In this document: positions 811 to 40,839 of the stretch, in pieces | Layout of the letters: each line of letters starts with the position of its first letter | How positions within the stretch are numbered: position 1 is the stretch's first letter | Origin: Thermodesulfobacteriota bacterium | GTDB taxonomy: Bacteria > Desulfobacterota > Deferrisomatia > Deferrisomatales > JACRMM01 | Assembly: GCA_040756475.1 (NCBI GenBank) | Contig: JBFLZB010000011.1 | Span: forward strand, 1 to 48,881 | Length of the DNA: 48,881 bases | Direction of reading: 5' to 3' | Translations under genes and position numbers: made by a program | The notes under the pieces: model-generated | Database searches by the model: none | What the model saw: the letters and a program-made list of their open reading frames with translations, nothing else | Told to the model about the DNA's origin: nothing

Positions 811-874
811 GACGTGACGGGTCGGCTCGGACCGATCGGTCCGAAACTCCAACGGACAACGGACAACGGACAAC
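811..874. repeat. Intergenic palindrome plus heptamer-repeat element, copy 1
   Basis: A perfect 14-base palindrome, GGACCGATCGGTCC (829-842), is followed by GAAACTCCAAC and three exact GGACAAC heptamers (854-874). A near-identical arrangement recurs at 9459-9607; the two copies agree without a mismatch from 827 to 857 and from 9560 to 9590. A degenerate stretch of GTGAGAC/GTGACGG units precedes the palindrome. The element ends 12 bases before the rqcH ATG and occupies the place where a ribosome binding site would be; no clear Shine-Dalgarno sequence remains. Confidence 0.85.
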
Positions 875-2515: not shown

Positions 2516-2695
2516 CCGCCCGCGGTGACGCGCCCGGAGGCATCGGCCGGCTCCGGCCGGATGGGTGGGGCGGGCGCCTGTGTGTCATCAGATGTCGCGG
2601 TCCAGTGCTCCTCTGCCCGGGCCCGGTCGACAGCATTCGGCATCGCTGGTAACGTCTGGTCTGTCGCACCCCGAGGTCGCATGGAGAGACTTGCT

Positions 2696-3013
2696 ATGAG
2701 GGCGCGAGACAGGGCCATCGCCGAGGAGCTCAAGCGGCGGGTCGCACAGCAGACGGCGCTTGTCGAACTGCGCGTTTTCGGCTCTCGCGCAAGGGGTGAC
2801 GCCGACCCCGACTCCGACATGGACGTGTTCGTCGAGGTCGAGGTGCTCGACCGCGACGTCCGGGACCGCGTCCTCGACGCGGCCTGGGAGGTAGGGTTCT
2901 CGCACCACCTCGTCATCTCCCCCCTCGTCTATTCGCGCCAAGAGGTGGAGGAGTCACCCCTGCGTGCCTCCCCCATCCTAAAGGCAATCGCCGAGGAAGG
3001 GGTGCCGGTATGA
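2696..3013 (+). CDS. MNT-type nucleotidyltransferase, partner of a HEPN protein
   Basis: Minimal nucleotidyltransferase of about 105 residues. The active-site signature is visible as VFGSRARGDADPDSDMDVFVE, that is GS followed by a DxD metal-binding pair. MNT proteins of this type neutralise the adjacent HEPN protein, in known cases by adding AMP to it, making a type VII-like toxin-antitoxin pair. The ATG at 2696 is preferred because GGAGAG lies at 2683-2688; the ATG at 2681 is possible. The stop codon overlaps the HEPN start in an ATGA, so the two are translationally coupled. The pair sits alone between rqcH and a convergent gene unit, as mobile defence or stabilisation modules often do. Confidence 0.85.
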   Translation: MRARDRAIAEELKRRVAQQTALVELRVFGSRARGDADPDSDMDVFVEVEVLDRDVRDRVLDAAWEVGFSHHLVISPLVYSRQEVEESPLRASPILKAIAEEGVPV

Positions 3014-3414
3014 TGGACCTGGAGGTCCTCTTTCGCTACCGGATGGCGCAAGCTGAGGAAACCCTGTCCGACGCACGGGCGATGCTCGCTGCGGAACTCA
3101 CGCCACGGTCCGTGGTGAACCGGGCCTACTATGCGGTCTTCTACGCGGTCTTGGCGCTCCTGCTCCACGAAGACATCGATCACCGGACATCCAGGCACTC
3201 GGGCGTCATCGCCGCCTTCGATCGTGCCTTCGTGCACACCGGCAGGCTAGACCGGGAACATTCACGGACGCTGCACCGCCTGTTCGACGCCCGGCAGGAG
3301 GCAGACTACCGGGAGTTCTCCTCGTGCTCCCGAGAGGATGCCGCCGCGGCCGTGAGCGCCGCGGAGAAGCTTCTTTGCGGAGTCCGACAGATCATCGCAG
3401 AGTCGACGCCCTGA
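3010..3414 (+). CDS. HEPN domain protein (toxin partner of the MNT protein)
   Basis: Small all-helical HEPN protein of 134 residues in the UPF0332-like group, recognised by NRAYYAVFYAVLALL near residues 37-51 and HSGVIAAFDRAFV further on. HEPN proteins of such pairs are putative ribonucleases held inactive by the cognate nucleotidyltransferase. It overlaps the MNT gene by four bases (ATGA at 3010). A classical RxxxxH RNase motif is not obvious in the C-terminal helix, so catalytic activity cannot be judged from sequence; substrate binding or a non-nuclease role remains possible. The order MNT then HEPN and the coupling are typical of the family. Confidence 0.85.
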   Translation: MMDLEVLFRYRMAQAEETLSDARAMLAAELTPRSVVNRAYYAVFYAVLALLLHEDIDHRTSRHSGVIAAFDRAFVHTGRLDREHSRTLHRLFDARQEADYREFSSCSREDAAAAVSAAEKLLCGVRQIIAESTP

Positions 3415-3627: not shown

Positions 3628-4788
3628 TTACTGCGCCGACACCGGCAGGCACGCCCAGGCACGCACCAGCCCAGGCTGGCCCGTGAGGTTCGACTGGAGA
3701 TCGAAGCACACGCGCCCCAGGTGGTCCGGCACCGGCTGGGGGGCACGCGCCATCTCGAGCAGGTCGCCCACGAGGAAGGTCACCTCGATCCGGGGGCCGC
3801 CCACCCCCTGGTTGCCCGAGGCCGGGTCAGCCTCGGCGGCCTTCAGAAGCGCCGACTGGGGCCGCACGGGCGCAAGCAGCGTGCCCTGCGGCGCCGCCAC
3901 CCGAAAGCTCGCCCGGTCCACCTGGTCGAGGCGGTACTGATTGTCCTCGACGCCCCCCAGGTAGAACACCACGTGCCGATGCTCCTGCCCCTCGACGCTA
4001 CTGCCCGGCCCCTGCCCGGTGAGCCAACTCTGGCGCCAGGCCTTGGGCTTGACCTCGATGTCGGTGTACCGGGCCAAATAGGGATTCACCACACTCGGGT
4101 CGTCGATGTCGAAGGTACGCCGCGTCTCCACCGCCTCGAATTTTGTCCCGTCGAACCGCCACAACGTGGTCTGGCCGGCCCCCGGCCCGCGAGACATAGG
4201 CCGATCCGGTACGATCAGGTCCTCGTTGACCATGGCTTCGAGTCTTCCATCGTTGTCGAAGTCGGCGAAGACCACCGAGGAGCCGCCGAAGGCTCCATAG
4301 GGCCACTCGGGGTCCTCTCCTGCCAGTAGGCTCACCAACTCGTTCTTCTCTCGGTCCCACCGAAACAGGTAGTGAGCCTCGGCGCGGTGGGTGCTCGTCG
4401 AAAGGTGAATCTCAGGCCGGCCGTCGCCGTCGATATCCAAGGCGCTAATGCCCGTACCCACCCCCGTCCCGAGGCGCCGTTGAGGGCCGGTTTCCCAGAT
4501 CAGGCGGTAGTTGCCGACCTCGCGCCGAAACACCAACACGGCCCCGCTGGCCCCGCTGGTATAGAAGACGATCCGGTAGTCCTTCGCCCCGGTTTCGTCG
4601 AGGTCCAGATCTTCCCAGCCGTTAAGATTCCAGCGACTTTCGATCTCCTCCGGATGGACATCCACGTACTCCGGGTGGTGAGCAATGATGAAGTCCTTGA
4701 TGGAGTCGGAGCCCGGAGCCTCTTGGGCCAACACAGAGAAAGGACTAATTCCTAGAATCAGCGCTATGGCAAGACAAATGATCTGCAT
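3628..4788 (-). CDS. Secreted FG-GAP/VCBS-like repeat protein, function unknown
   Basis: Exported protein of 386 residues. It has a clear signal peptide (hydrophobic core IICLAIALILGI, likely cleavage after VLA). Two Asp-rich calcium-type loops, LDIDGDGRPEI and ADFDNDGRLEA, are characteristic of FG-GAP/VCBS beta-propeller repeats and lie in the middle third. The last 100 residues carry no motif I recognise. It starts 12 bases downstream of the cytochrome-transglycosylase gene on the same strand, so the two are almost certainly co-transcribed and probably act together in the envelope. There is no lipobox or C-terminal anchor, so periplasmic or extracellular location is inferred. No enzymatic signature is seen. 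Confidence 0.75.
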   Translation of the reverse strand: MQIICLAIALILGISPFSVLAQEAPGSDSIKDFIIAHHPEYVDVHPEEIESRWNLNGWEDLDLDETGAKDYRIVFYTSGASGAVLVFRREVGNYRLIWETGPQRRLGTGVGTGISALDIDGDGRPEIHLSTSTHRAEAHYLFRWDREKNELVSLLAGEDPEWPYGAFGGSSVVFADFDNDGRLEAMVNEDLIVPDRPMSRGPGAGQTTLWRFDGTKFEAVETRRTFDIDDPSVVNPYLARYTDIEVKPKAWRQSWLTGQGPGSSVEGQEHRHVVFYLGGVEDNQYRLDQVDRASFRVAAPQGTLLAPVRPQSALLKAAEADPASGNQGVGGPRIEVTFLVGDLLEMARAPQPVPDHLGRVCFDLQSNLTGQPGLVRAWACLPVSAQ

Positions 4789-4800
4789 GGTCCTCCTCCA

Positions 4801-7065
4801 TCACCTTGGGTAGTGGCCGAGACTCAATGCCCAGACCTTCTGAGAGTACTCCGACACAATCAATCTCTCTGGCTGACCGTTGTACCCGCTTAAGGCGGAC
4901 TCAAGCCAGTTCTGCCACTCGGAAAAACTGCGTACCCCGTTCGCTGCTTCCAATCCTGACAACCGGTCTCGCCTCCCGTCCCCGTCGGTGTCGTACCACT
5001 GGATAGGAGCCCGGTTCCTGTTTCTGTCCTCGAAGAAGTACATCAGATTCTCACACCCCAGCTCCACGTTGGGGCTGTAGCCTGCCGTGAGATAGCTCGG
5101 GTTCATGTGGCGCCACCCGTCAGCCACGTTCCAGCGAAGCGGCGCCGCCGCCGTGCCCCACAGCACTTGCATGTACCCGTAGCTCGAGGCCAGCGTCGTC
5201 TGCGCCGTGTGGTAGCGCATGCCGTTCAGGACGGCCGTATTGCTGGCAAGCTCCTGATAAAGTTTCGCGTAGTGCCTCACCCGGTTCGCCTCCAGGATCT
5301 CTCGCTGAGAGTAGAACCCGTCGGCGGGGCTGTCGTCGCGCAGGACGTACATCTGCCGGTACTGCACGTCGGGCGACCCCGGCCCCACCGGCGCCAGCAG
5401 CCGCGCTCCCCACCCGCGCACCCCGTCGTCGTGCGGCCTGGGGCCAATGAGCTCCGGGTCCACCTGGAAGGGATCGATCCCCGTGGCCACCCGGTAGTGG
5501 GCGTAGGGTACCTCGTCGCGGCGATCCCGGCACCCCTCGCCGGGCCGGCACCCGGGGCCGATGTAGTCGAAGTCGTACTTGGGCTCGTAGCGGTAGGCGG
5601 CGGGGTCGAAGACCGATTCCTGGTGAATCACCGCCTTGATGATCTGGGGCGGGATGCCGAACCGGTTGGCCGTGCCCTCGAGGTTCCAGTCGAACTCGTT
5701 TCGGCTGGTGCCGAGCCGAAGGCCCCGTGCGCTGGGGCGCACCACCTCAAAGACGAACTGGGCCGCCGGCGCCCCGTTCACCGCCACTCCCACCGTGGCC
5801 TCCCCCAGGTGCACCGGCCAGAAGAGCTTGCCCAGGGCCGGTTCGCCAGAGGCGTAGGCGTAGCCCTCGGTGAAGAAGAACCCCACCTCGCCTCCGTAGC
5901 GCTCGGGGTTCGACTGGCGCCAGACCAGGAAGTGGCGCCCTTCGTCGGAGGCGTCGGGCAGGGGGGCGCTGCGGTCGAGGTCCGACGCCAGGGCCCAGGA
6001 GGCCGCCACAGGGGCCTCGCCCCGAAGCACCCGAAAGACCACCGGCCGCCCCAGGGCCACCCGCAGGGGGGCGTCACCCGCGCCGGGCACCTCGCGCCAG
6101 GCGGGGTCGAGCTCCAGGCGGGTCGTGCCCCCCGCCTCCGCCGTCATCCCCGTCACCTCGCGGTACTGCACCCGATAGGCCGGGGCCTGCGCCGGCACGT
6201 CCACCCGAAACACGAACGGCACCCCGTCGCTCTCCTGGTAGAAGGGGATGAGCCGCACTTCGTAGCGGCCGGCGGCCAGGCTGGCGAGGTTCCACGAAAA
6301 CGCGGGATTGGGGTACTGGAGGCTCCACAGGTCCGGGCAGACCTGCTGGCCCTGGTTGGCGGGGTTGCCCACCTGGGACCAGGCGATGCGGATGCCGTTG
6401 CCGGGGGTGGGGCCCCGGTGGGACTTTTGCGCCGAGCACTTCTGGTCTCCGGCCGAGGGGAAGCGAACCACGGCGGCGCGAAAGCCGATCTTGCCCTGTG
6501 CCCGCTGGTCGGTGAGCTCGAAGACGTAGATGCGGGTGCGGCTGGTGCCGGGCCAGGTGGGGTCGAACCCCCGATCCGTAATCTCGAAAGGCCCCACGGT
6601 GGGGCTGCCCGCGTAGTAAGGGGTGACGTGGCAGGTGCGGCACATCTGGAACTGGTCCAGGCCCATGCCGAGCTTGATGTTCCTAGAGCCGGGAATCATC
6701 TTCGAAGCGCTCAGGGCGTGGCAGTCGTTGCAGTACAGCCCCGTCTCCGCCATTGCATTGAACTGAAACTGGTCGGAGCTCACCGCCTGCATGCCCAGGG
6801 CCATTGCCCCAAAGGAACCCAGGCCCCCTCCCCAGACCTCCCCATGACCCCCGTCATGACACGAGAGACAGGACGCGTTGACGTCGCCGCCCACGAAGGC
6901 GATCTCGCCGGCAGGGGTTCCCGGTGCCGGGGTGCCGAGATGGCAGCTACCGCACTCGTAGGCCCCGTGGGCACCGGTGAGATCGGGGCTGGCCAGGGCC
7001 GGCCCCGCAAGCAAGAGCGCCCCCAGGGCGCCGGCCAGCCCAAGCCCCCTTCTTCTTCCCCTCAT
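4801..7065 (-). CDS. Tetrahaem c-type cytochrome fused to a lytic transglycosylase (SLT) domain
   Basis: Exported protein of 754 residues. The start is fixed by a perfect GGAGGA Shine-Dalgarno sequence ahead of MRGRRRGLG; a longer open frame upstream is not convincing. Signal peptide 1-25. Four CxxCH haem motifs lie at residues 38-42, 66-70, 112-116 and 142-146. A long middle region of beta-sandwich character (about 170-440) includes NPAFSWNLASLAAGRYEVRL. The C-terminal SLT domain (about 465-700) has the catalytic Glu483 in HQESVFDPAAYRYEPKYDF and the second SLT motif SSYGYMQV. A DTDGDGRRD calcium-type loop follows. The expected activity is cleavage of peptidoglycan with 1,6-anhydro product, tethered to a redox domain. 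It leads a two-gene unit with the FG-GAP-like protein. Confidence 0.85.
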   Translation of the reverse strand: MRGRRRGLGLAGALGALLLAGPALASPDLTGAHGAYECGSCHLGTPAPGTPAGEIAFVGGDVNASCLSCHDGGHGEVWGGGLGSFGAMALGMQAVSSDQFQFNAMAETGLYCNDCHALSASKMIPGSRNIKLGMGLDQFQMCRTCHVTPYYAGSPTVGPFEITDRGFDPTWPGTSRTRIYVFELTDQRAQGKIGFRAAVVRFPSAGDQKCSAQKSHRGPTPGNGIRIAWSQVGNPANQGQQVCPDLWSLQYPNPAFSWNLASLAAGRYEVRLIPFYQESDGVPFVFRVDVPAQAPAYRVQYREVTGMTAEAGGTTRLELDPAWREVPGAGDAPLRVALGRPVVFRVLRGEAPVAASWALASDLDRSAPLPDASDEGRHFLVWRQSNPERYGGEVGFFFTEGYAYASGEPALGKLFWPVHLGEATVGVAVNGAPAAQFVFEVVRPSARGLRLGTSRNEFDWNLEGTANRFGIPPQIIKAVIHQESVFDPAAYRYEPKYDFDYIGPGCRPGEGCRDRRDEVPYAHYRVATGIDPFQVDPELIGPRPHDDGVRGWGARLLAPVGPGSPDVQYRQMYVLRDDSPADGFYSQREILEANRVRHYAKLYQELASNTAVLNGMRYHTAQTTLASSYGYMQVLWGTAAAPLRWNVADGWRHMNPSYLTAGYSPNVELGCENLMYFFEDRNRNRAPIQWYDTDGDGRRDRLSGLEAANGVRSFSEWQNWLESALSGYNGQPERLIVSEYSQKVWALSLGHYPR

Positions 7066-7665: not shown

Positions 7666-8997
7666 ATGGGCCGAGGGCACCGGGTGCTCCACGCCGCTGC
7701 GCTGGCCGCGTGTTTTCTCGGCGTGGCGCGGCCGGACCGCCTGTGGTCGTCCCTTCCCCCCCGGTTGACGCCGGAGGCTGCCGATGCCCTGAGGGCCTCG
7801 CTGTCGGAGCCCTGGACGCCGAGCATCGACGAGCGGTTCGGGGTTCTCCTGGAGGAGCGCATCCGGGAGCTTAGGGGCTTTCGCCGGGCCGAGGGGGAGG
7901 TGGCCTCGGGGGAGACCCTGGGGGCCGTGCTCCAGAAGAGCGGCGTGGCGCCGGCAGACGCCCTCGCCCTGGCCCGCAGCCTGGCGCCGGTCTTCGACCC
8001 CCGCCGCGCCCGCCCCGGCGACGCCTACACCCTGCTCCTCGACCCCCAGGGCCGCCCTGCCGAGCTCACGTACCGGCGCAGCCCCGTGGAGGTGTACCGG
8101 GCCGAGGCCCGGGGCGAGGGGTGGCGGGCCGAGAAGGTGGAGATCCCCGTGGCTCGGGAGGAGGCCGTGCTCGCGGGGAGCGTTCGCGGCTCGCTCTATG
8201 CGTCGTTCCTGGCGGCCGGGGCCGATCCGGACCTGGTGATGGCGTTTGTGGACCTCTTCGCCTGGGACCTGGACTTCTCCCGGGACACCCGGGAGGGGGA
8301 TGCCTTCGAGGCCCTCTACGAGACCCTCTCCGCCGGCGGGGAGCCGGTGGGCAACGGGCGGCTCCTGGCAGCCCGGTACCGGGGGGCGCGGGGCACCTGG
8401 TCGGCCGTGTACTACCGGTCGGCGGCGGTGGAGGGGTACTTCGATCCCGAGGGCCGGAGCGTGCGCAAGAGCTTCCTTCGCTCCCCTCTCCAGTTCTCCC
8501 GGATCTCCAGCCGGTTCACCCACGCCCGGCGCCACCCGGTGCTCGACGTGGTGCGTCCCCACCAAGGGGTGGACTATGCCGCTCCGGCGGGCACCCCGGT
8601 GTGGGCCGTGGCCGACGGCACCGTGGAGCACGCGGGGTGGAAGGGCGAAGCGGGCAACACCGTGGCGCTGCGCCACGCCCGGGGCTACGAGACCCTGTAC
8701 AACCACCTCTCGGGCTTCGGCCGGGGCATCCGGGCGGGGGCGCGGGTCGCCCAGGGGCAGGTGATCGGATACGTGGGGCAGACGGGGCTGGCCACGGGTC
8801 CCCACCTGGACTTCCGGGTCAAGAAGGACGGCCGCTGGGTGGACCCCCTGCGGGAGAAGTACGTGCCCGGCGACCCGGTGCCCCGGGGCGAAGCCGATGC
8901 CTACCGGGCCTGGGCCCGGGGGTGGCTCGATCGCCTCGACGAGGTCGCCGCCCGGGAGCCCGAACGCCGGGTGGCACGCGCGTCCGGCGGGCAGTGA
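7666..8997 (+). CDS. M23 family metallopeptidase (peptidoglycan endopeptidase)
   Basis: Envelope peptidase of 443 residues of the MepM/OapA-like architecture. It has a short N-terminal signal or anchor (AAALAACFLGVA), a 200-residue region typical of proteins that precede LytM domains, and a C-terminal M23 domain. The zinc motif HQGVD places His299 and Asp303. The terminal motif reads HLDF (His380-Leu-Asp382) where many M23 enzymes have HLHF, so the usual final histidine ligand is Asp; I believe relatives in this subgroup share this variant, but did not check. The expected activity is cleavage of peptide crosslinks during cell-wall growth. The dtd gene follows after 7 bases, suggesting an operon. 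Confidence 0.88.
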   Translation: MGRGHRVLHAAALAACFLGVARPDRLWSSLPPRLTPEAADALRASLSEPWTPSIDERFGVLLEERIRELRGFRRAEGEVASGETLGAVLQKSGVAPADALALARSLAPVFDPRRARPGDAYTLLLDPQGRPAELTYRRSPVEVYRAEARGEGWRAEKVEIPVAREEAVLAGSVRGSLYASFLAAGADPDLVMAFVDLFAWDLDFSRDTREGDAFEALYETLSAGGEPVGNGRLLAARYRGARGTWSAVYYRSAAVEGYFDPEGRSVRKSFLRSPLQFSRISSRFTHARRHPVLDVVRPHQGVDYAAPAGTPVWAVADGTVEHAGWKGEAGNTVALRHARGYETLYNHLSGFGRGIRAGARVAQGQVIGYVGQTGLATGPHLDFRVKKDGRWVDPLREKYVPGDPVPRGEADAYRAWARGWLDRLDEVAAREPERRVARASGGQ

Positions 8998-9458: not shown

Positions 9459-9607
9459 GTGACGGGTGACGGGTGAAGCGTGAGGCGTGAGGCGTGATGG
9501 GTGATGGGTGATGGGTGATGGGTGATGGGTGAAGCGGCCGATCGGTCGGATCGGTCGGATCGGACCGATCGGTCCGAAACTCCAACGGACCACGGACCAC
9601 GGACAAC
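9459..9607. repeat. Intergenic heptamer array plus palindrome element, copy 2
   Basis: Eleven tandem heptamers of the form GTGAYGG/GTGARGC occupy 9459-9535. GATCGGTCG-type nonamers follow, then the perfect palindrome GGACCGATCGGTCC (9562-9575), GAAACTCCAAC, and three GGACMAC heptamers (9587-9607). Copy 1 at 811-874 shares the palindrome and terminal heptamers but has only a degenerate first array. This copy ends four bases before the ATG at 9612 and has displaced any Shine-Dalgarno sequence. Confidence 0.9.
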
Positions 9608-29262: not shown

Positions 29263-29931
29263 ATGAATTGCAGGGAGTTCGAGGCCCTGTGGATCGGCCG
29301 GCTCGAAGGCCGGCTGTCCGGCGCCGAGGCCGCGCGGCTCGATGGTCATGCGGCGGGGTGTGCCCCGTGCCGCCGGCTGGTGACGGAGCTGGAGAAGCTG
29401 GAAATGCGGCTGGAGGCCCTCTCCGAAGAGCCGGCGGAACCCCCGCCCTACCTCGCCGCCCGAATTCGGGCGCGGCTCGGCGAGGTGCCCCGGCGCCGGG
29501 GCTGGCTGGGGGGCTGGGCGGTTCGGCCGCTCTTCTCGGCGCGGTGGCTCCTGGTGTGCACGACGGCTTCGCTCGCGTTCTTTGCCGGGCTCCTGGCACG
29601 AGAGGTGCACCGGCTCAACGAGTGGTTCCGCTCGTCGGGCAACGTGCAGCAGGTCGTTCTGGAGTACCCGGGTACGGAGGGAGAAGACGTGCGCCTGGTG
29701 GGCGACTTCAACGGCTGGGGCCGCTCCCCCGGGCCGGTGCGGGCCGAGCGCCGGGAGGACCGCTGGATCTTCCGGGTGGAACTGGCGCCCGGCCGCTACC
29801 AGTACGCCTTCCTCGTGGACGGCAAAACGTGGTTGCCCGACCCGGAGGCCCCGAGTATGATCCCCGACGGTTTTGGGGGTTCAAACTCGCTCTTGTACGT
29901 GCACGGACGAGGGGAGAGTCAGTCCCTGTGA
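29263..29931 (+). CDS. Zinc-finger (anti-sigma type) membrane protein with CBM48/AMPK-type domain
   Basis: Protein of 222 residues in three parts. An N-terminal anti-sigma zinc-binding domain has HAAGCAPC (His29, Cys33, Cys36). A single TM segment at about 93-112 is followed by a C-terminal beta-sandwich (about 130-215) with VRLVGDFNGWG and GRYQYAFLVDGKTW. The latter are hallmarks of the CBM48/AMPK glycogen-binding domain, here on the far side of the membrane. The cytoplasmic part would bind the ECF sigma factor, and the CBM-like domain could sense a polysaccharide or act as an assembly module. ATG 29263 follows GGGGAGG. It ends 46 bases before the first cytochrome gene. Confidence 0.87.
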   Translation: MNCREFEALWIGRLEGRLSGAEAARLDGHAAGCAPCRRLVTELEKLEMRLEALSEEPAEPPPYLAARIRARLGEVPRRRGWLGGWAVRPLFSARWLLVCTTASLAFFAGLLAREVHRLNEWFRSSGNVQQVVLEYPGTEGEDVRLVGDFNGWGRSPGPVRAERREDRWIFRVELAPGRYQYAFLVDGKTWLPDPEAPSMIPDGFGGSNSLLYVHGRGESQSL

Positions 29932-29977
29932 GGGGAGGACAAGGCCTGCCGGAAATGTGGTCTTCCGAGGTCGCCCC

Positions 29978-31672
29978 GTGAGAAATAGGGCACAGCCGGT
30001 CGCAGGGAGAACCGCTTCGGGCGGTTTCTCCCTGTTCGTCGTTCTGTGGTGTGTGTTTCTCGCCGCCGCTGCGCCGGCCCAGATGGTGGGGAGCCGGCAT
30101 GACTTCGTGCAGTACGGGTTTAGCGGCGGCGGGGCCTGCGCTGCGTGCCACGTGCCCCACAACGCCGCCACGATCCGCCTGTACCCGCGCCCCGTCGGGG
30201 CTACGGTGCTCCTTCTGTGCAAAGACTGCCACAAGGACGCGAGCCCGGCGCTTCCCACCGGACCGGGTTGGACCACGGTGACGGGCGCGCCCACCCCGCC
30301 CCGGTACCCCCACCCCGCGGAGACCCGCTTCGACGACTGCACCCGGTGCCACGCCCACATCGGACCCGATCCCTTCGGCCCGCCTCCCAACGACGACTGC
30401 CTCACCTGCCACAAGGCCGGCGGGGTCTCCAGCATCGACATCGACGGGCTCTTCGCACAGATCGGGGAGAATCTGGAGCCTAACCCGCCGATCCTGAGCC
30501 AGCACAACGCCTATTACATCACCGACGGCAACACGGGCACCTACGAGCCCTTCTGGCCCGCGGCGGCGGGGGGCAACGCCAACGAGTGCAAGAAGTGCCA
30601 CGGCGACAAGGCCGAAGACGGCGTGGCGCTTCGGCACCCGAGCAGCACCGTGCGCCTGGTGGAGACCGGGCCGCGCACGGGGATGCTGCGCTCGGCGTTC
30701 CTCGTGTACAGCGATGCCTCCGGAAACGCCATGACCCCGACCGCCACCTACGCCTACCCGCGGCAGCCCGACGACAAGCGGCTCTACGAGCTGTTTTGCG
30801 CGAACTGCCACAAGGGCAAGCCGGAGGGGTCCACTCCGGTCTCCGAGAAGCTCGGCGGGCCCCTCGGCGGCTCCCAGGTGGGACCCACGCTTCGTACGAA
30901 CCCGGCCAACCAGCAGCCTCCTCCATCGCCGCCCGCCAGCGGGTGGATCGTCGCCGCGGTACCCCCCAAGGATGCCCAACTCCCGGCTCCCTATCTCAAC
31001 GACCGGGCGACGGGGAGGCCCGAGTACTTTGCGTACTTCGGCACCAACGGCCACGGCAACCTGGCGGCGCCCATCAGCGGGGGGACGATGGACCGCACCT
31101 GCCTCTCCGGAGGCACCAACGGCTTCGACGGCTGCCACGTGCCCCACGGGAGCCGGAGCCGGTTTCTCCTGGACGACGCCCTCATGTTCCCGCCGGCGGG
31201 GATCAAGACGGCGAGCGGCGTGGGCACGGCCGTGTGCATGGCGGCGGACTGTCACGTGCCGGGGGTGAACTTCGCCCTGGACCAGTCTGCGGGCCAGATC
31301 TCGACCTTCCACGGCTGGTGGGCCAACGGCACCGTGCTCCACGACAACAGCCCGCTCAACGGCGGCGTCCCTCCGTTTCCTGCGCTCGACGGCATGAGCC
31401 AGTGGCGCGTCTACGGCAAGGCCAACATGAACATCTCCGGTGCCGCCGCCCCGGTCGGAATCCTGCCGTTCTACGGTGATCCGGCCGGCGCGACGGAGCT
31501 CCACCAGCGCGCCTACCCCACGGCCCTGAGCGGCACGGCCTCCTGGGTGAGCTGCCTCACGTGCCACGACCCCCACGGCACGGGGCCGGATACCGAGCCT
31601 GGGATGGGTCGGCGCTTTGACGATACCATGTCGTATACGAGCCCCCTCTGCGGCGAGTGCCACGTGGAGTAG
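29978..31672 (+). CDS. Ten-motif multihaem c-type cytochrome
   Basis: Exported cytochrome of 564 residues. The signal peptide ends near PAQ (residue 35). Eight CxxCH motifs (CAACH, CKDCH, CTRCH, CLTCH, CKKCH, CANCH, CLTCH, CGECH), one CxxxxCH (CMAADCH) and one probable extended CX10CH (31100-31138, followed by VPHG as in the first haem site CAACHVPHN) make ten sites. 'CHDPHG'-type ends are typical of Geobacter-like periplasmic or extracellular cytochromes. GTG 29978 has GAGG upstream. There is no obvious lipobox or C-terminal anchor. As first in the series, it may be the electron entry or a cap (inference). Confidence 0.9.
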   Translation: MRNRAQPVAGRTASGGFSLFVVLWCVFLAAAAPAQMVGSRHDFVQYGFSGGGACAACHVPHNAATIRLYPRPVGATVLLLCKDCHKDASPALPTGPGWTTVTGAPTPPRYPHPAETRFDDCTRCHAHIGPDPFGPPPNDDCLTCHKAGGVSSIDIDGLFAQIGENLEPNPPILSQHNAYYITDGNTGTYEPFWPAAAGGNANECKKCHGDKAEDGVALRHPSSTVRLVETGPRTGMLRSAFLVYSDASGNAMTPTATYAYPRQPDDKRLYELFCANCHKGKPEGSTPVSEKLGGPLGGSQVGPTLRTNPANQQPPPSPPASGWIVAAVPPKDAQLPAPYLNDRATGRPEYFAYFGTNGHGNLAAPISGGTMDRTCLSGGTNGFDGCHVPHGSRSRFLLDDALMFPPAGIKTASGVGTAVCMAADCHVPGVNFALDQSAGQISTFHGWWANGTVLHDNSPLNGGVPPFPALDGMSQWRVYGKANMNISGAAAPVGILPFYGDPAGATELHQRAYPTALSGTASWVSCLTCHDPHGTGPDTEPGMGRRFDDTMSYTSPLCGECHVE

Positions 31673-31700
31673 GGGCTCCACCCGGGAGAGCAGACGACCG

Positions 31701-32228
31701 ATGACCACTATGCGCGACTCCGGATTTGGGATCTCCTTGCTTCTCTCGGCCTTTGCCGCCGCTTTGCTCCTGGGCCCGGCCCCGGTTCAGGCCGCGGCCG
31801 AGGGGGAACCCCTTCCCGCCATCACCCTGCCCGACGCCGCCACCGAGAAGCCGGTGGACCTCGGTGCCCACTTCCAGGGCAGCGTCGGCGCCATCTCCTA
31901 CATGCAGACCTCCTGCGCGGCGTGCCGCCAGGAGCTCTTGGCCCTCAAGGACCTCCGGGGCAAGTACCCGGAGCTCAAGGTGGTGGCCATCAGCGTCGAC
32001 TCCGGAAACCCCGCCCGCGTCGCCCGCTACCGGGAGCACTTCGGGTTCGACTTCCCCTTCGTCCACGACCCGGACTTCAAGACCCCCGAGCTCTTCGGGT
32101 TCTCCTTCACCCCGGCCCTGGTGCTCGTGGCGAAGGACGGAACCATCGGCCTCCTCAAGGGCGGCTACCGGCCCGGAGACGAAGTGGAGCTGGAAAAGAA
32201 GATTCTCGAGCTTACGGGAAAGCAGTAA
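31701..32228 (+). CDS. Exported redoxin (peroxiredoxin/TlpA-like, CAAC)
   Basis: Thioredoxin-fold protein of 175 residues. A signal peptide (ISLLLSAFAAALLLGPAPVQA) is followed by an AhpC/TSA-type domain. The active-site pair is CAAC at 72-75 (QTSCAACRQELLAL), and cis-Pro is in FTPALVLV. It sits 28 bases after the ten-haem cytochrome gene and before a triheme one, so a role in keeping cytochrome cysteines reduced is likely. It is the third exported thioredoxin-fold protein in 6 kb, with a different CxxC (CAAC, CVAC, CGPC). Confidence 0.87.
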   Translation: MTTMRDSGFGISLLLSAFAAALLLGPAPVQAAAEGEPLPAITLPDAATEKPVDLGAHFQGSVGAISYMQTSCAACRQELLALKDLRGKYPELKVVAISVDSGNPARVARYREHFGFDFPFVHDPDFKTPELFGFSFTPALVLVAKDGTIGLLKGGYRPGDEVELEKKILELTGKQ

Positions 32229-32234
32229 GGCTCG

Positions 32235-32313
32235 TCTCACGCAACGGCGCAACGACGCAGCGTGAAGAGAGCACAAGGGTTTTCGTTGCGTCGTTGCGCC
32301 GTTGCGTGAGACA
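32235..32313. repeat. Perfect 26-base inverted repeat (hairpin)
   Basis: The arms 32235-32260 and 32288-32313 are exact reverse complements, 26 bases each, around a 27-base spacer. The units are CGCAACG/CGTTGCG. It starts six bases after the redoxin stop codon. It could act as a terminator-like or mRNA-stabilising stem, or be a mobile repeat; no T-tract follows the right arm (CATGTTTTCC lies next to it). Confidence 0.9.
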
Positions 32314-32354
32314 TGTTTTCCGTTTCGTTTCCTCGGTCCCCACGAGTTGGAGCC

Positions 32355-33197
32355 ATGCGAGGAATGACATTGCCCCTGGTTCGGCGTTGCACGCTCCTGG
32401 TGGGGATGCTCCTGCCCCTGGCGGCGGGCGCCCAGCAGCCCCCCATCCCCCTCGAGAGGGTCACCTACCGGGACGTGGCGGGGCAGGTCGTGGACGGCGA
32501 CAGCGGGGCGCCGGTGGAGGGGATCGCGGTCAGCCTCCTCTACGAGGTCACCGTCACCGACGACGCGGGCCGGTTCCGGTTCGAGAAGGTACCGCTCACC
32601 CACACCGCCGAGGTGAGCATCCGGGTGCAGAGCAAGACCGGGCTCATCATCGGATGCACCACCATCGACGTGCCCGTGCGCTTCTATCCCCTGGCCGCGG
32701 AGGCCGACGGCAGGTTCGCCATCGCCATCGTCGACCCGAGCACGGAGGAGCCCGTCACCCTGCGCCTCGAAGCGCTGCCCTCCCAGAGCGTCGACCAGGC
32801 CTGTCGGCAGTGCCACGAGTCCAACCCGTGCATGGAGCAGGCCACCTTCGAGCAGGTCGTCCAGAGCGGCAAAGATCTGCGCGGCATCATCGTCCGCGAG
32901 GACAAGATGGAGGAAACGCGCCGCCAGCTCCTGCAGCAGGGGCTCCAGCGCGACACCTACGTCAAGATGCGCTACCAGGACACCCATCCCGACGGGATGA
33001 ACATGGAGCTGATCCCCATCCTGGAGCTCGAGGAGTACCGGGGCCGTTTCCGCAAGCCTACGAACCTCAAGCTGGTGGACGACAAGTTCGTCAACTGCGA
33101 CACGTGCCACACGCGGCACGTGCCCACCGCGCAGAAGCACTACGTGGTGATGCCCTACGAGCAGGAAAGCCAACTGTGCTACGAGTGCCACCGCTGA
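32355..33197 (+). CDS. Trihaem cytochrome with N-terminal carboxypeptidase-regulatory-like domain
   Basis: Exported protein of 280 residues. After the signal peptide (LVGMLLPLAAGA), a beta-sandwich of the CarboxypepD_reg type (about 38-130: VAGQVVDGDSGAPVEGIAVSLLYEVTVTDDAGRFRFEKVP) is followed by three CxxCH motifs (CRQCH, CDTCH, CYECH) with a helical stretch between them. The beta domain may mediate contact with surface sugars or other cytochromes. ATG 32355 is used; ATG 32364 is an alternative. It ends 38 bases before the Reg_prop protein. Confidence 0.85.
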   Translation: MRGMTLPLVRRCTLLVGMLLPLAAGAQQPPIPLERVTYRDVAGQVVDGDSGAPVEGIAVSLLYEVTVTDDAGRFRFEKVPLTHTAEVSIRVQSKTGLIIGCTTIDVPVRFYPLAAEADGRFAIAIVDPSTEEPVTLRLEALPSQSVDQACRQCHESNPCMEQATFEQVVQSGKDLRGIIVREDKMEETRRQLLQQGLQRDTYVKMRYQDTHPDGMNMELIPILELEEYRGRFRKPTNLKLVDDKFVNCDTCHTRHVPTAQKHYVVMPYEQESQLCYECHR

Positions 33198-33235
33198 GCA
33201 CCGGGCCGAAGCGGCCGGCGCAAGAAGAGGATGGG

Positions 33236-34606
33236 GTGCGCCCTGGGAGGGGCTTGCCCGCATCCCAATCCTCGGCAGAAGACCCACAGCGTTGGGGCGC
33301 CGGAAGGCTCCTGTGGCGAGGGCTCGCTGCCTTCGCCGCCGCCGTGGTGCTCGCCTCGGCGCTCGGCTGCGCTGCCGGCGCAGTGCGCTCCGAGCCGGAG
33401 CCGGGTGACGCTCTCGCCCCGGGCGCGCCCGCGGCACAAGATCGGCTCCGCTTCGAGCTGCCCCCCCCGCCCGAGCGCACGGAGGCCCAGGCGTGGGAGA
33501 GCGCGAACGCGCGCGCCCGGGCCATGGCCGCCGACATGGGGCGCGAGATCGCCGCGGTGGTCCCTCCCCCGATTCCTGCCGAGGTGGCGTCTCCTCCCCC
33601 TGCCGTTGCACCGTCGCCGCCGCGGGTTGCTCCTCCGGCGCCCCTCCCCTCCGTGCCGCCTTCGCCCGATCGCACCCCTGCCGGGCCTGCCGTCGCTGCG
33701 GGTACGGCGCCGGTACGGGCCGCGGTTCCCTCAGTGCGGGTTGCGCGCAAGTACACCACGGAGAACGGCCTGCCCTCGAACCGCATCACCGCCCTGTATG
33801 TGGACGCCGAGGACGCCTGGGTGGGCACGGCGGATGCCGGGGTGGCGCGGCTCAACTTCGCGGAGGGCAACTGGATCGTCACGCGGGTGGAAGACGGGCT
33901 GACCTCGAACCGGATTACCGACATCGCCCAGGTCAAGGACCTGGTCTTCGTGGGAACCCAGGAGGGGGTCAGCGTCTGGGACGGGGTTTCCTGGAAGACC
34001 GAGACGGAGGCCGCCGGCGTGCCCCTGGTGAATCCGGTCTTCGCGGTCCACGAGGGCACGCTTTGGCTCTCGAGCCGGACCATGCGGGGCGGTTTGGTGA
34101 CCTTCGACGGCATTTCCTGGCGCAACCGGTCCACCATGATGCCCGGAGGGGTCCTCAACAACGTCTCCAGCCTGGGATTTTCGGGCAAGGACGTGTGGCT
34201 CGGCACCTCCAACCGCGGCGTATACCGGTTCGACGGGAAGGAGTGGACCACCTACACCGTCAGCGATGGGATCACGAGCAACTTTATCTACACGCTGGCG
34301 GTAAGGGGGGGCACCTGTTTCCTGGGAGGCTGCTGCGGCGTCAGCGCTTTCGAAGGGGGCACGTGGCGCGTCTACGACATTGCCGAGGGCCTGCCGCACT
34401 CGACGGTGAACGCGATCGCAGTGGCCGGCGAGCTGGTCTGGTTCGGCTCGAAGAAGGGCCTGGGACTCTTCGACGGCTTCGACTTCACGAACTTCTACAT
34501 GGCGGACGGCCTGACCGACGATCGCATCACCAGCCTCTTCGTCAAGGGTGCAGAGGTGTGGGTGGGCACGGCCAACGGTCTGACCGTCCTCGAAACCAGT
34601 TACTGA
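33236..34606 (+). CDS. Reg_prop beta-propeller protein, probable lipoprotein
   Basis: Protein of 456 residues. The start is GTG 33236 with GAGG five bases upstream. A hydrophobic signal ending SALGC (about residue 44) may be a lipobox. A Pro/Ala-rich linker (about 60-160) precedes a propeller of 'two-component regulator propeller' repeats. Each repeat shows xDGLxSNRITxLxV followed by VWVGTxxGVxxxDG: at least five copies (ENGLPSNRITALYV, EDGLTSNRITDIAQ, SDGITSNFIYTLAV, AEGLPHSTVNAIAV, ADGLTDDRITSLFV). In other proteins such repeats are the sensor part of hybrid kinases, but no kinase domain is present. A structural or ligand-binding role beside the cytochromes is inferred. Confidence 0.85.
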   Translation: MRPGRGLPASQSSAEDPQRWGAGRLLWRGLAAFAAAVVLASALGCAAGAVRSEPEPGDALAPGAPAAQDRLRFELPPPPERTEAQAWESANARARAMAADMGREIAAVVPPPIPAEVASPPPAVAPSPPRVAPPAPLPSVPPSPDRTPAGPAVAAGTAPVRAAVPSVRVARKYTTENGLPSNRITALYVDAEDAWVGTADAGVARLNFAEGNWIVTRVEDGLTSNRITDIAQVKDLVFVGTQEGVSVWDGVSWKTETEAAGVPLVNPVFAVHEGTLWLSSRTMRGGLVTFDGISWRNRSTMMPGGVLNNVSSLGFSGKDVWLGTSNRGVYRFDGKEWTTYTVSDGITSNFIYTLAVRGGTCFLGGCCGVSAFEGGTWRVYDIAEGLPHSTVNAIAVAGELVWFGSKKGLGLFDGFDFTNFYMADGLTDDRITSLFVKGAEVWVGTANGLTVLETSY

Positions 34607-34624
34607 CCGGGAGAGCGCACAGCG

Positions 34625-37210
34625 ATGTCTACAGCGCAGCCCCGTCTGCCCGTCCGCGCCCCAGGGGTGGCCGTGAGGCTCTTCCTGGCCGGGGCAGCTC
34701 TTGCCGTCGTGCTCCTGGGGGTGCGGGCAAGCTGGGCAGACCACTCCCTCGGCTATCCCTGCCTGCAGTGCCACGCCCTCCGCTCGACGAAGGTGAAGGT
34801 GGGCACCCGGAACATCTTTACCGACCGGATCGATCCCTACGCCCTGTACACACAGTACTGGTATTGCGGCAACTCCTTCAGCGGGGGTCAGCCCCTCGAC
34901 TGTTCCTACTGCCACTCCGAGGGTTCGGACATCGGGCTGGAGATTGGTTGGGATCGGGGGGGGGCCGCGGGCTCGGCCTCTTCGGCCCACCCGGTGGACG
35001 TGATCGGCCCCGCAACGAGCTATGGAGCGGGGCGCATCAAGTGCAGCGACTGCCACAACGCCGACGTGTCCCCCTCGGACCCTTTTTGCGGCAAGACGGC
35101 GGATGACGGCTACCCCAACCACAAAAACCTCTCGGCCGTGACCGTCGACACGGGCACGAACCAGCGTACGGGAGCCGCCGCTCACCTGGACCCCAGCTAC
35201 AAGTACGGCGACACGGACACCGACGCAGCCTACGGCGTGGACTGGACGGCGGCGACGTTCACCGGGTCTAACGTCCCCCTCTGCTTCAAGTGCCACACCG
35301 ACATCAAGGCCAAGTACGACGCCCCTAACGGAGGGCACAACATCCGCAGCCGCTCGGACGACAGCGCCAACCAGAACGGCACGCTCACGAAAAAGCTCGG
35401 CTGCTACAACTGCCACGACCCCCACGCCTCGACCGACAACCCGAGCACGACCGACGTCACCGAAGGCAACGCCGCCCTCATCGTGACCCGGGCCGTCGGA
35501 TACTCCCACACCCCCTACGGCACGAGCTATACGGGGGCCAACCTGCCTCCCGTGGGCTACACGGGGGCCAACGACCGCTTGGTGTGCTACGGCTGCCACA
35601 GTGGGTACCTGGTCGAGGGCCAGACCCTCGGCGACGTCCTCGATCCCGATGTCTTCAGCCCCCGGTTCCCCTTTCACCAGAACGCCCACGCCGACCTCGG
35701 CTCGTCGGGCAACTGCCTCCAGAAGAACAACGGGTGCCACCAGGACGTCCACAACACCGACATCTACCGCTGCCTCGACTGCCACAGCACGGCGGTGACC
35801 TCCGCCATGGGCTCGCCGCCCGCGCGCCTCGTGGCCGTGGCCCACGTGGACGACGACTTCGGCCGGACGGCCGAGGGGGTCGGCAAGGTGTTCCACGGCG
35901 ACCGGTGGAGCCAGCACTCGGTGCGCTACGACGACGACCCCACCCTCTCGACCGACAACCTGACGCTGGACCTGAGCGACCCGGCCGTCAACGAGTGCCT
36001 CAAGTGCCACCGGGTGCGGGCCCAAACCGCGATCTCCGGCAGAATGCCCATGGTGTGGGTGGGTACCCTCCTGAGCGGTACTGCCTACGGTCGGCCTTCG
36101 GCCGGGCCCACTGGATGGAGCAACCGCGAGGCGCTCAACCATTACGACCCCTTCTGCCTCTCGTGTCACAACGGCGGCTACCCGGCATTTCGCGGCAACC
36201 TGCCCGCCCCCAACGTCGGAAGGTACTTCGCCTCGGCCGGCCATGGGAGGACGACGAGCTTCTCCCTACCCTCGTCGAACGGAGCACCGAAGATTCCCTG
36301 CCTCGAGTGCCACCTGTACCACGGGTCTTCCGCCTACAAGCTCCTGCCTGGCGACTCCCTCGTGGGGCAGGCCAGGGTGGTGAAGGGGTTTGCCTATGCG
36401 CGGCAGACCACGGGTACCGTCTTCCCCCTCGGGGACAACACCGACAGCCGCAAGATCGACTACACCGACTACACCGACAAGGGGGGTACACCCGACAGCC
36501 CCACCCTCTACAACAGCCGACTGAGCGGCAGAGCGAGCAACGACCTGCGGTCCGGGTACCTGTCGAACTACACGGTGGACTGGTCCACCAATCGGGGCGA
36601 CACGCCTCGAAACCCCGCCGGCATCTGGACGCCCTTCGGCACCTCGGGCGACGTGCGGCCGAACACCCAGAACAGCAACCGGTCCCTCGATTGCAACCAG
36701 GACGCCACCGACGCCAGGAATACCACGACGCCGAAGATCGGCTTCTGCAACGCGTGCCACTTCTACTCCAACAGCACCGACGGGACGGCCAGCGCCTACG
36801 GGCGCATCTACACCCACGAGGGCGACCCAGGCGGAACCAACTGCGCCGGGCAGCCCACCGGAGACAAGATCGCCTTCTTCAAGGACTGCGCCGAGTGCCA
36901 CGATCCCCACGGCTCGGGGAGCAGCACTAACGCCAACTTCTTCATGATCCGAGGCAAGATCAAGCACGGCAAGACCGAGAACCTCACCGACGCACAGAAC
37001 TCCTCCAACTGGACGGAGGTCAACTTCTACGTCTCGGGGGCAGACCCGGTGCCGCCCTACGATCCGAACAAGACGAGCAACAGCGAGCACCTGTGCAACG
37101 TCTGCCACTCGGGCCTTCTCTGGAGCAACCTGGATCCGGCCCAGGACACGGCGGACCACGCCCTGGGCCAACGGTGTACCCAATGCCACCCGCACAGCGA
37201 GAGCCCGTGA
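34625..37210 (+). CDS. Fifteen-motif multihaem c-type cytochrome
   Basis: Exported cytochrome of 861 residues with a signal peptide (LFLAGAALAVVLLGVRASWA). Fourteen CxxCH motifs (first CLQCH, last CTQCH) and one probable CX6CH (35714-35740, NCLQKNNGCHQ) are spread along the chain, with a haem-poor middle stretch between CLECH and CNACH. CHDPHG ends recur. There is no CxxxxCH motif, which separates it from the two following genes. ATG 34625 follows GGGAGAG. The stop is 10 bases before the 24-haem gene. Confidence 0.9.
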   Translation: MSTAQPRLPVRAPGVAVRLFLAGAALAVVLLGVRASWADHSLGYPCLQCHALRSTKVKVGTRNIFTDRIDPYALYTQYWYCGNSFSGGQPLDCSYCHSEGSDIGLEIGWDRGGAAGSASSAHPVDVIGPATSYGAGRIKCSDCHNADVSPSDPFCGKTADDGYPNHKNLSAVTVDTGTNQRTGAAAHLDPSYKYGDTDTDAAYGVDWTAATFTGSNVPLCFKCHTDIKAKYDAPNGGHNIRSRSDDSANQNGTLTKKLGCYNCHDPHASTDNPSTTDVTEGNAALIVTRAVGYSHTPYGTSYTGANLPPVGYTGANDRLVCYGCHSGYLVEGQTLGDVLDPDVFSPRFPFHQNAHADLGSSGNCLQKNNGCHQDVHNTDIYRCLDCHSTAVTSAMGSPPARLVAVAHVDDDFGRTAEGVGKVFHGDRWSQHSVRYDDDPTLSTDNLTLDLSDPAVNECLKCHRVRAQTAISGRMPMVWVGTLLSGTAYGRPSAGPTGWSNREALNHYDPFCLSCHNGGYPAFRGNLPAPNVGRYFASAGHGRTTSFSLPSSNGAPKIPCLECHLYHGSSAYKLLPGDSLVGQARVVKGFAYARQTTGTVFPLGDNTDSRKIDYTDYTDKGGTPDSPTLYNSRLSGRASNDLRSGYLSNYTVDWSTNRGDTPRNPAGIWTPFGTSGDVRPNTQNSNRSLDCNQDATDARNTTTPKIGFCNACHFYSNSTDGTASAYGRIYTHEGDPGGTNCAGQPTGDKIAFFKDCAECHDPHGSGSSTNANFFMIRGKIKHGKTENLTDAQNSSNWTEVNFYVSGADPVPPYDPNKTSNSEHLCNVCHSGLLWSNLDPAQDTADHALGQRCTQCHPHSESP

Positions 37211-37220
37211 GGAGGAGGGG

Positions 37221-40200: not shown

Positions 40201-40742
40201 TCCCGTCGGCTTCGGGCAATCGGAACCGCCTGTCCGTCGTCACGATCGAGAACACGGGGGGCACGGGCCTGTGCAACGGGTGCCATCCCCGCACCACCTA
40301 CCCGGACAACCACCACCCGAGCCTTCAGGGCACGACGCAGAACCCGAATCGCGATATCGTGGTGAACGCGGCGTCCCAGCCCGTTCGCCAAGCGCCCACC
40401 ACGTGGTTCGAGAACCCCCCGGGCAGCGATCACTGGGAGCAGGACGGCTACAGCGCCTCGGGCGTGTCCGGCAACCCGGACTTCTTCGTGGACTGGTGGA
40501 ACGGCTCCGGCACCCCACCCAGGCCCCAACCCCTGGCCGTGCTGCCGCTCATCCAGTTCGTGGGCGACCAGAGCGGGACGACCAACACCGTGATCTGCGT
40601 CACGTGCCACAATCCCCACGGGACGGACCTCTATGTCTTCGATCCGGGAGGCATCGGCGGCGCGATCCCCGACAACAACATGCTGCGGCTGCGCGACGAG
40701 GACAACACGTTGTGCAACGCCTGTCACAAGAACCTGCCATAG
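37221..40742 (+). CDS. 24-haem c-type cytochrome with CxxxxCH...CxxCH modules
   Basis: Exported cytochrome of 1173 residues (signal peptide ending QAARA). Twenty-one CxxCH and three CxxxxCH motifs (CSTVDCH, CESFYCH, CVALDCH) are present. The CESFYCH...CGTCHG unit (residues ~310-360) matches the Geobacter GSu_C4xC__C2xCH domain (PF09698/TIGR01904). The segment CSTVDCHYRV - CSNCHGSGTAG - CTQCHPAHGTNMSHQ - CESFYCH - CGTCHG - CYQCH is nearly the same, in order and wording, as the repeating module of the giant downstream protein. A ribosome binding site GAGGAGG precedes the ATG. There is no membrane anchor at the C-terminus. It probably forms the same class of structure as its neighbour. Confidence 0.92.
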   Translation: MKRAHVLLGLLAVGAALFLVPQAARAHNTRMVGFGLASAYQPGSCSFCHGQAVDGSPVGQYWPAAAPGSYPNRAADHPQHIAALSQARYQETTAVLVTDTAKGAAHDKQVALCLACHPDPGQPRAGTGESSHAVNADPAGIADVHGDGRTPSTASTFQTIRKQDDPSLAGVAQVVSGTYSNSTAASGKRCSTVDCHYRVPTPVTGASPDGWYNPAAVATCSNCHGSGTAGALLPNVHLAHVAAFPPANNRPPGKGYACTQCHPAHGTNMSHQNGSIDLSFASALGEPGPVQGFQTGSDLLVKFGGAGAYATCESFYCHGSDLNNGGTDQTPLWSDFTTGNCGTCHGVNGDPVALGRAPGKAVTSGSHPVHFTVPRGPVLLDDHASAGCYQCHNSVVAADHAAGCGDCHPSYFDGAATIMGGAIGPGASNPTPTHVDLKVDFGNTVQTTATQSVLGTTAPAGAPDATSTDRCNNCHSTASIPAVGVGTVLAKANWASAAYELPCLTCHNAADPATRNADGSGVLAPPKDTHYATRGHGLATGSRYPWSSNRSGAGAACSDCHATAAAHISGTLGDTDRLGTAGNALCNGCHDGSGSGSAVSQVSTHANTSTTMTSTYQPQRASFQLNCAECHDVHGSENIFMIAAPSLDGPLVAPRLYSGSENLSTLLYRGTVSFLDDSVGTSTTVGAGYANPTVGNGSFASWICQACHTQTVHFQYDSNDGHVNTDCILCHKHDFDGTFGTTSQDGFMPSGCNGCHGYPPVRPGEEGGNPDYLAENYPGGGGFHKAHVEALKGKLASSTDAREICGPCHGQGAGSTNHAESGQSTGAWPTSARDVVNIRAKAAGQSSWGSGTYGGALVDATGTTPGNVAMDAANSRCVALDCHGQPAAGENLNWFSPITDGAGASDGLAKSQACKGCHDQTPSQWRVYDAGGTLAYTGNASNAAANYYRTLSGYSRGGHGDAGIQNEDPFVNSAPGSTTPIDCTACHADGADHFPSASGNRNRLSVVTIENTGGTGLCNGCHPRTTYPDNHHPSLQGTTQNPNRDIVVNAASQPVRQAPTTWFENPPGSDHWEQDGYSASGVSGNPDFFVDWWNGSGTPPRPQPLAVLPLIQFVGDQSGTTNTVICVTCHNPHGTDLYVFDPGGIGGAIPDNNMLRLRDEDNTLCNACHKNLP

Positions 40743-40839
40743 GGACAGGGGCGTGAAACCAACGTCGTTTCATCCCGGTACCCCGGTCCACCGTTAGGGA
40801 CAGGGCCCGCACTGGTCCGTTAGAGGCACAGGGATCGCC

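What the first reader, a model, noticed from the sequence alone, without database searches (positions are those of the whole stretch)
4801..7065. Tetrahaem cytochrome fused to a lytic transglycosylase
Four CxxCH motifs in the first 150 residues and a complete SLT catalytic domain (Glu483, SSYGYMQV) in one exported chain. A peptidoglycan-cutting enzyme tethered to a redox domain could open the wall for cytochrome wires or be controlled by redox state. I know of no described family with this pairing.
Basis: partly seen in the sequence, partly recalled or inferred. Interest (0 to 1): 0.78.

Follow-up and report, generated by a model that had tools for sequence, protein, structure and literature searches.

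The report
Haem-bearing wall-cutting enzyme with partner
A bacterium rich in haem "wire" proteins carries an exported cell-wall-cutting enzyme that begins with a four-haem module; its cutting half belongs to an apparently undescribed enzyme family, otherwise seen here only in Acidobacteriota and without haems, whose gene is followed by a gene for a second exported protein.

Summary
Window 7065-4801 (minus strand) is one intact 754-aa exported protein. It has four CXXCH motifs at residues 38, 66, 112 and 142, and a C-terminal lysozyme-like SLT (GH23) domain with Glu483, SSYGYMQV and YNG. The SLT domain is split by an insert of about 110 aa, so Pfam SLT misses its cut-off on the whole protein. 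Removing the insert, family profiles and an AlphaFold model (Z 15.4 to Pseudomonas Slt) all support a folded SLT core.

I found no second cytochrome-SLT fusion in about 780 sampled genomes or in the collection scans. But residues ~300-754 are homologous to proteins in 8 of 386 sampled Acidobacteriota genomes, all without CXXCH and with varied N-termini. In every locus with an intact SLT gene and a 3' flank, the SLT gene is followed within -14 to +16 bp by a second exported-looking gene, FG-GAP-like in nearly all. The window has the same pair (partner at 4788-3628).

So the conserved unit is an Ig-like/long-insert SLT enzyme plus its partner. The haem module is one swapped N-terminal module, probably a tether to this organism's cytochromes. 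The "opens the wall for wires" and "redox-controlled" ideas are untested and get no support from relatives. One genome only: a chimera cannot be fully excluded.

The parts
4801..7065 (-). Whole gene: exported tetrahaem / Ig-like / long-insert SLT protein, 754 aa
   Evidence: Open frame; SD and ATG at 7065; GC3 continuous
6988..7065 (-). Signal peptide, residues 1-26 (MRGRRRGLGLAGALGALLLAGPALA/S), by inspection
   Evidence: Sequence; no signal-peptide program was run
6616..6987 (-). Tetrahaem module, residues 27-150, CXXCH at 38, 66, 112, 142
   Evidence: Pfam Cytochrome_C7 29.4 bits, over cut-off; haem-3 motif CxxCHALSxSKMxxGSRxIK shared with the first haem of giant cytochromes of the same genome
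6169..6615 (-). Residues 151-299, no recognised family
   Evidence: No significant Pfam match; GC3 0.88-0.96, so coding
5725..6168 (-). Ig-like beta domain, residues 300-447, shared with the Acidobacteriota relatives
   Evidence: Alignments; model pLDDT mostly 67-93 with a low loop; weak VIA matches to Ig-like domains, Z about 4.5-5.9
5566..5712 (-). SLT core part 1, residues 452-500, with catalytic Glu483 (codon 5619-5617) and RYEP motif
   Evidence: model pLDDT about 90 over the helices
5236..5565 (-). Family-specific insert, residues about 501-610
   Evidence: A long insert is also present in the Acidobacteriota relatives but not in short RYEP SLTs; pLDDT under 50
4804..5235 (-). SLT core part 2, residues 611-754: SSYGYMQV (5187-5164), YNG (4884-4876)
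   Evidence: Slt70/MltC hits with the family profile; Z 15.4 to 5ohu
3628..4788 (-). Downstream partner gene, 386 aa, exported-looking, FG-GAP repeats, 12 bp after the SLT gene
   Evidence: FG-GAP_3 43 bits; homologous to the partner in G403 (E 7e-13) and in G456 (5e-5); SD GGAGGAGGACCATG

Best explanation
The gene encodes an exported lytic transglycosylase. Its functional core is an Ig-like domain plus a GH23/SLT domain with a long insert between the catalytic glutamate and the YG-MQ motif. This core belongs to a family that I did not find named anywhere, and the family's gene is followed by a gene for an exported FG-GAP (integrin-like propeller) protein. Shown: intact ORF, four haem motifs, conserved catalytic residues and a modelled SLT fold, homology of residues ~300-754 to Acidobacteriota proteins, and the conserved gene pair. 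Inferred: the enzyme cleaves peptidoglycan; the FG-GAP partner binds it and restrains or positions it. Also inferred: the N-terminal position takes exchangeable modules, and here it took a four-haem module built from this genome's own cytochrome vocabulary. That module most likely works as a tether or address that places the enzyme among the organism's multihaem cytochromes, rather than as a catalytic redox part.
For: Intact exported ORF. Cytochrome_C7 over cut-off. Haem-3 motif shared with the giant cytochromes of the same genome. SLT identity by RYEP profile, spliced Pfam, the A3 profile hitting Slt70, MltC and goose lysozyme, and the structural match to Slt (Z 15.4, 127 residues, 2.3 A). 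Relatives in 8 of 386 sampled Acidobacteriota genomes, none with CXXCH in the SLT frame. Module swap inside one genome: G403 contigs C119 and C266 are 94.6% identical over the 275 bp of SLT-side DNA up to their ends but mostly differ upstream. Partner gene adjacent in every locus with an intact SLT gene and a 3' flank. In G000 FG-GAP matches fall in only three open frames, one of them this partner. GC3 of the pair is lower (0.87, 0.82) than that of the window's housekeeping genes (0.93), which fits acquisition as a pair.
Against: Only one genome has the haem version, so the role of the haem module rests on a single sequence. Partner homology to the window protein is detectable only through the FG-GAP region; the C-terminal part of the Acidobacteriota partners gives no match to it, and the partners of L158 and L160 are not significantly matched by that profile. 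L159 is a fragmentary SLT gene without a partner. No enzymatic or binding data exist. The insert is unmodelled (pLDDT under 50).
Confidence: 0.5

Rival explanations
1. Antagonism pair: the SLT protein is an exported peptidoglycan-cutting effector with a swappable N-terminal delivery or adhesion module, and the FG-GAP protein is its exported immunity protein, as Tsi3 is for Tse3.
For: Tight spacing of two exported-looking genes in every intact locus; two SLT+partner pairs in tandem in G489 and several copies in G403; N-terminal module exchange; Tse3 structures among the VIA matches at Z 10.3-10.7; low GC3, with a nucleotidyltransferase-HEPN pair next door.
Against: The partner is large (240-530 aa) and propeller-like; no secretion cluster was looked for or seen next to the window gene; general lytic transglycosylases (Slt, MltF) score higher than Tse3 (89).
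Confidence: 0.22
2. Redox-controlled or wire-associated wall opener: the haems sense or pass electrons, and the SLT domain cuts openings for extracellular cytochromes.
For: The genome gives 66 Cytochrome_C7 matches, and ORFs of 8, 14, 21 and at least 53 CXXCH lie in the same window; the haem module is related in motif to these (78).
Against: Relatives with the same core and partner lack haems; not co-operonic with the cytochromes; no second fusion in 395 genomes of the phylum sample, cytochrome-rich relatives included.
Confidence: 0.15
3. The open frame is a chimera made by assembly or by a recent accidental gene fusion without function.
For: Single occurrence; a draft assembly of 369 contigs with 4% contamination.
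Against: Frame and GC3 continuous across the junction region 151-299; good SD at both genes; window composition correlates 0.97 with 23 other contigs of the genome; catalytic residues conserved.
Confidence: 0.08
4. The SLT domain has lost catalysis and serves as a glycan-binding module.
For: Divergent sequence, below the Pfam cut-off unless spliced (7, 27).
Against: Glu483 is at a column invariant in all 11 family rows and 16 mixed rows (66, 68); the MQ and YN motifs are kept.
Confidence: 0.05

Closest known systems
GH23 soluble lytic transglycosylases (Slt/Slt70, MltC, MltF)
   Same: Catalytic Glu, G-MQ motif, YN motif, same modelled fold (Z 15.4 to 5ohu, 12.5 to 1qte)
   Different: Insert of about 110 aa between the Glu and the MQ motif, Ig-like domain in front, four-haem N-terminus, FG-GAP partner gene
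RYEP-type short SLT proteins of phages and Acidobacteriota (...ESxxxPxAxRYEPxF...TSWGLMQVMG...), named here only for convenience
   Same: Diagnostic RYEP motif after the catalytic Glu; profile 37.6 bits
   Different: Those found are mostly about 150-330 aa, without the long insert and without haems
Cytochrome c7 / multihaem c-type cytochromes (Pfam Cytochrome_C7)
   Same: CXXCH spacing, model above cut-off, shared haem-3 motif with giant cytochromes of the same genome
   Different: Only two histidines besides the CXXCH ones in the module (H33, H74), so four bis-His haems are not possible within it; fused to an enzyme
Giant multihaem cytochromes with wall or carbohydrate domains (ANME MHC-A/B/C, PMC9012536)
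   Same: Precedent for haem chains fused to envelope-related domains (S-layer, peptidase M6-like, pectin-lyase-like)
   Different: No lytic transglycosylase is among the domains in the passages read; archaeal; tens of haems
Tse3-Tsi3 (type VI muramidase effector and immunity protein)
   Same: Muramidase fold related to goose lysozyme, with a partner protein
   Different: No type VI context shown here; the partner here is FG-GAP; the Tse3 match is weaker than the Slt match

Membership tests
GH23 / SLT lytic transglycosylase | Catalytic Glu in the first core helix (ES motif) | tested here: met
   E483; invariant in the family and in RYEP SLTs
GH23 / SLT lytic transglycosylase | G-x-MQ motif and YN motif downstream | tested here: met
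   SSYGYMQV 627, GYNG 727
GH23 / SLT lytic transglycosylase | Lysozyme-like SLT fold | tested here: met
   Model mcaceca8308e9, Z 15.4 / 127 aa / 2.3 A to 5ohu; Foldseek alone gave nothing at E<=0.001
GH23 / SLT lytic transglycosylase | Pfam SLT score over the curated cut-off | tested here: inconclusive
   16.2 vs 21.3 intact; 26.8-30.7 with the insert taken out
GH23 / SLT lytic transglycosylase | Non-hydrolytic cleavage giving 1,6-anhydro-MurNAc | not testable with these tools
   Needs biochemistry
Cytochrome c7 / c3-type multihaem | Several CXXCH motifs in an exported chain, model over cut-off | tested here: met
   Four CXXCH, 29.4 vs 24.8 bits
Cytochrome c7 / c3-type multihaem | Bis-His ligation of each haem | tested here: not met
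   Only H33 and H74 are available besides the motif histidines in residues 1-175; other ligands (Met, open site, His from elsewhere) would be needed
RYEP-type SLT | RYEP motif after the catalytic Glu and collinear profile match | tested here: met
   37.6 bits against 2.1 for the best shuffle
Long-insert SLT + FG-GAP gene pair | Ig-like domain + split SLT, and an FG-GAP-like gene within about 20 bp downstream | tested here: met
Tse3-type effector with immunity protein | Delivery by a type VI system and a neutralising partner | not tested
   Only a fold resemblance and a co-transcribed-looking partner

The most novel reading that the evidence does not exclude
A peptidoglycan-cutting enzyme whose position or activity is set by a four-haem module plugged into the organism's cytochrome network: electron flow would direct where the wall is opened, with an FG-GAP partner restraining the enzyme until then.
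Probability: 0.12. Interest if true: 0.85.

Novelty: new variant of a known kind. Interest (0 to 1): 0.52.

Why it matters
It defines an apparently undescribed family of exported lytic transglycosylases that comes with a co-encoded exported partner, and so offers a two-gene system for testing how bacteria restrain or aim wall-cutting enzymes. The haem-bearing member gives a concrete, testable case for a link between electron-transfer proteins and local wall opening, which matters because how large cytochromes cross the peptidoglycan is not settled (own knowledge).

Tried and rejected
Close relatives by exact peptide scan: none in genome contigs, viral contigs, plasmids (17) or phages. Weak relatives' hits at residues 33-165 are ordinary longer multihaem cytochromes. 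The SYGYMQV DNA pattern in 395 genomes of the phylum sample gave only the window gene and chance hits. A hand-diversified alignment for pattern design gave nothing. The first structure model, with RYEP rows only, was poor (pLDDT 52) and Foldseek was uninformative; adding long-insert relatives raised it to 65 / pTM 0.71. Alignment A4 held a mistyped row (L160) and was used only for the invariance count of E483, which A5 confirms; it was not used for modelling. Contamination of the window contig was considered: its tetranucleotide profile correlates 0.97 with 23 other contigs of the assembly, against 0.86-0.88 for one pair of Acidobacteriota loci compared with either. C-terminal homology between the window partner and the Acidobacteriota partners was not detected. 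Paper searches for this pairing gave nothing relevant.

Full report
What is there. Window 7065-4801 on the minus strand is one open frame of 754 aa. The ATG at 7065 follows AAAGGAGG and the next gene starts with its own GGAGGAGG. The protein opens with a Sec-type signal peptide (by inspection), then CXXCH at 38, 66, 112 and 142. Far downstream come HQE483S, SSYGYMQV (627) and GYNG (727). Third-position GC stays at 0.78-0.96 for the first 600 codons and 0.84 for the next 100, so no non-coding seam separates the halves. Pfam Cytochrome_C7 is over its cut-off; Pfam SLT is not (16.2 vs 21.3 bits).

The SLT domain is real but split. Taking out the roughly 110-aa insert raises Pfam SLT to 26.8-30.7 bits. 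I collected SLT proteins that carry SWGLMQVM from viral contigs. They show a common 'RYEP' motif after the catalytic glutamate. A profile of 20 of them scores the intact window protein 37.6 bits; the best of 200 shuffles scored 2.1. Similar stand-alone proteins are common in Acidobacteriota chromosomes.

Relatives. Searching residues ~145-754 in a sample of Acidobacteriota found true relatives: the best, in G403, is 33% identical over 270 aa (E 4e-25). They share the Ig-like domain, the catalytic glutamate region, a long insert and the AQTxxASSYG(L/Y)MQV region. With a profile of nine rows, 8 of 386 sampled Acidobacteriota genomes have members. In the window's own phylum sample of 395 genomes only the window gene is a full match; two others are short generic SLT-like hits. 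None of the relatives has a CXXCH motif in the SLT frame. Their N-termini differ: an IPT/TIG domain in L141 (L140 has a TIG-like stretch by eye), unassigned in others. In G403, two contigs share 94.6% identical DNA over their 275 terminal bases, which encode the catalytic-Glu region, but mostly differ upstream apart from a 217-bp stretch near the start of the gene. I read this as exchange of N-terminal modules.

The partner gene. In the window the SLT gene is followed after 12 bp by a gene for a 386-aa exported-looking protein with FG-GAP repeats (43 bits). The same arrangement holds in L133, both copies in L136, L137, L138, L139, L140, L141 and L158, with spacings of -4 to +16 bp when the plausible start codons are taken. 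L160 has an overlapping gene with a single DVNGDG motif. L159 is a fragment without a partner. The window partner matches that of G403 at E 7e-13 and that of G456 at 5e-5; the Acidobacteriota partners, L133 and L137 apart, are 33-74% identical to one another. The homology to the window partner lies in the FG-GAP region. FG-GAP matches fall in only three open frames of the window's genome, so adjacency by chance is unlikely. The closest solved structure to the partner is cartilage acidic protein 1, an FG-GAP protein (E 8e-7).

Structure. With 16 aligned sequences AlphaFold2 gives pLDDT 65 and pTM 0.71 for residues 300-754. The SLT core helices around the catalytic Glu are at about 90, most of the Ig-like domain at 67-93, the insert under 50. 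VIA-align matches the SLT core to Pseudomonas Slt at Z 15.4 (127 residues, 2.3 A), to MltF, Slt70 and g-type lysozyme at Z 12.5-13.6, and to Tse3 at Z 10.3-10.7. Foldseek by itself gave no match at E<=0.001. The family profile finds Slt70, MltC and goose lysozyme by sequence.

The haem module. Residues 27-150 hold four CXXCH but only two further histidines (H33, H74), so not every haem can have two histidine ligands from this module. The stretch around haem 3 (CNDCHALSASKMIPGSRNIK) resembles the first haem of at least four giant cytochromes of the same genome (CxDCHAVSxSKMVVGTxLIKKS). The module therefore belongs to the local cytochrome vocabulary. This genome has 66 Cytochrome_C7 matches.

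Reading. The conserved unit is the Ig-like/long-insert SLT protein plus its FG-GAP partner. The haem module is a local addition. I commit to a peptidoglycan-cutting enzyme with a binding partner that restrains or positions it, tethered in this organism through a haem module (0.5). Antagonism with immunity is the main rival (0.22). The pair's lower GC3 (0.87 and 0.82 against 0.93) suggests acquisition from elsewhere.

Limits. One genome, draft assembly, no reads. The search covered about 395 genomes of the window's phylum sample and about 386 Acidobacteriota; other phyla were reached only by exact-peptide scans. The organism's name was not determined. Wet-lab function is untested throughout.

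Noticed in passing
window 29873-48881: Run of multihaem ORFs on the plus strand with 8, 3, 14, 21 and at least 53 CXXCH motifs; the last (2680+ aa) runs off the contig end.
   Followed up: partly
window 40840-48881; L164, L165, L166: Giant cytochromes of this genome share an N-terminal first-haem motif HYPxGxxCxDCHAVSxSKMVVGTxLIKKS right after the signal peptide.
   Followed up: partly
window 2525-3414: Nucleotidyltransferase (PF01909) and HEPN (PF05168) gene pair, convergent with the partner gene; PADLOC PDC-S09 match. Lies in a stretch of lower GC3 (2.5-7.1 kb).
   Followed up: partly
window 7666-8997: Divergent M23 peptidase with Csd3_N2 domain: a second peptidoglycan enzyme right beside the SLT gene.
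   Followed up: no
window 820-874 and 9553-9607: 55-bp intergenic direct repeat, 95% identical, 8.7 kb apart.
   Followed up: no
window 33081-33209: Cytochrome_C7 match reading through one TGA at the end of the 3-haem ORF 32313-33197; possible truncation.
   Followed up: no
L134 and L135 (G403 C119, C266): Two SLT genes with 94.6% identical DNA over the catalytic-Glu side and mostly different upstream parts; both contigs end at about the same place.
   Followed up: yes
L136: Two SLT+partner pairs in tandem on one 5.2-kb contig.
   Followed up: partly
L091-L113: Short stand-alone RYEP-type SLT proteins are frequent in Acidobacteriota chromosomes, resembling phage SLT proteins.
   Followed up: no
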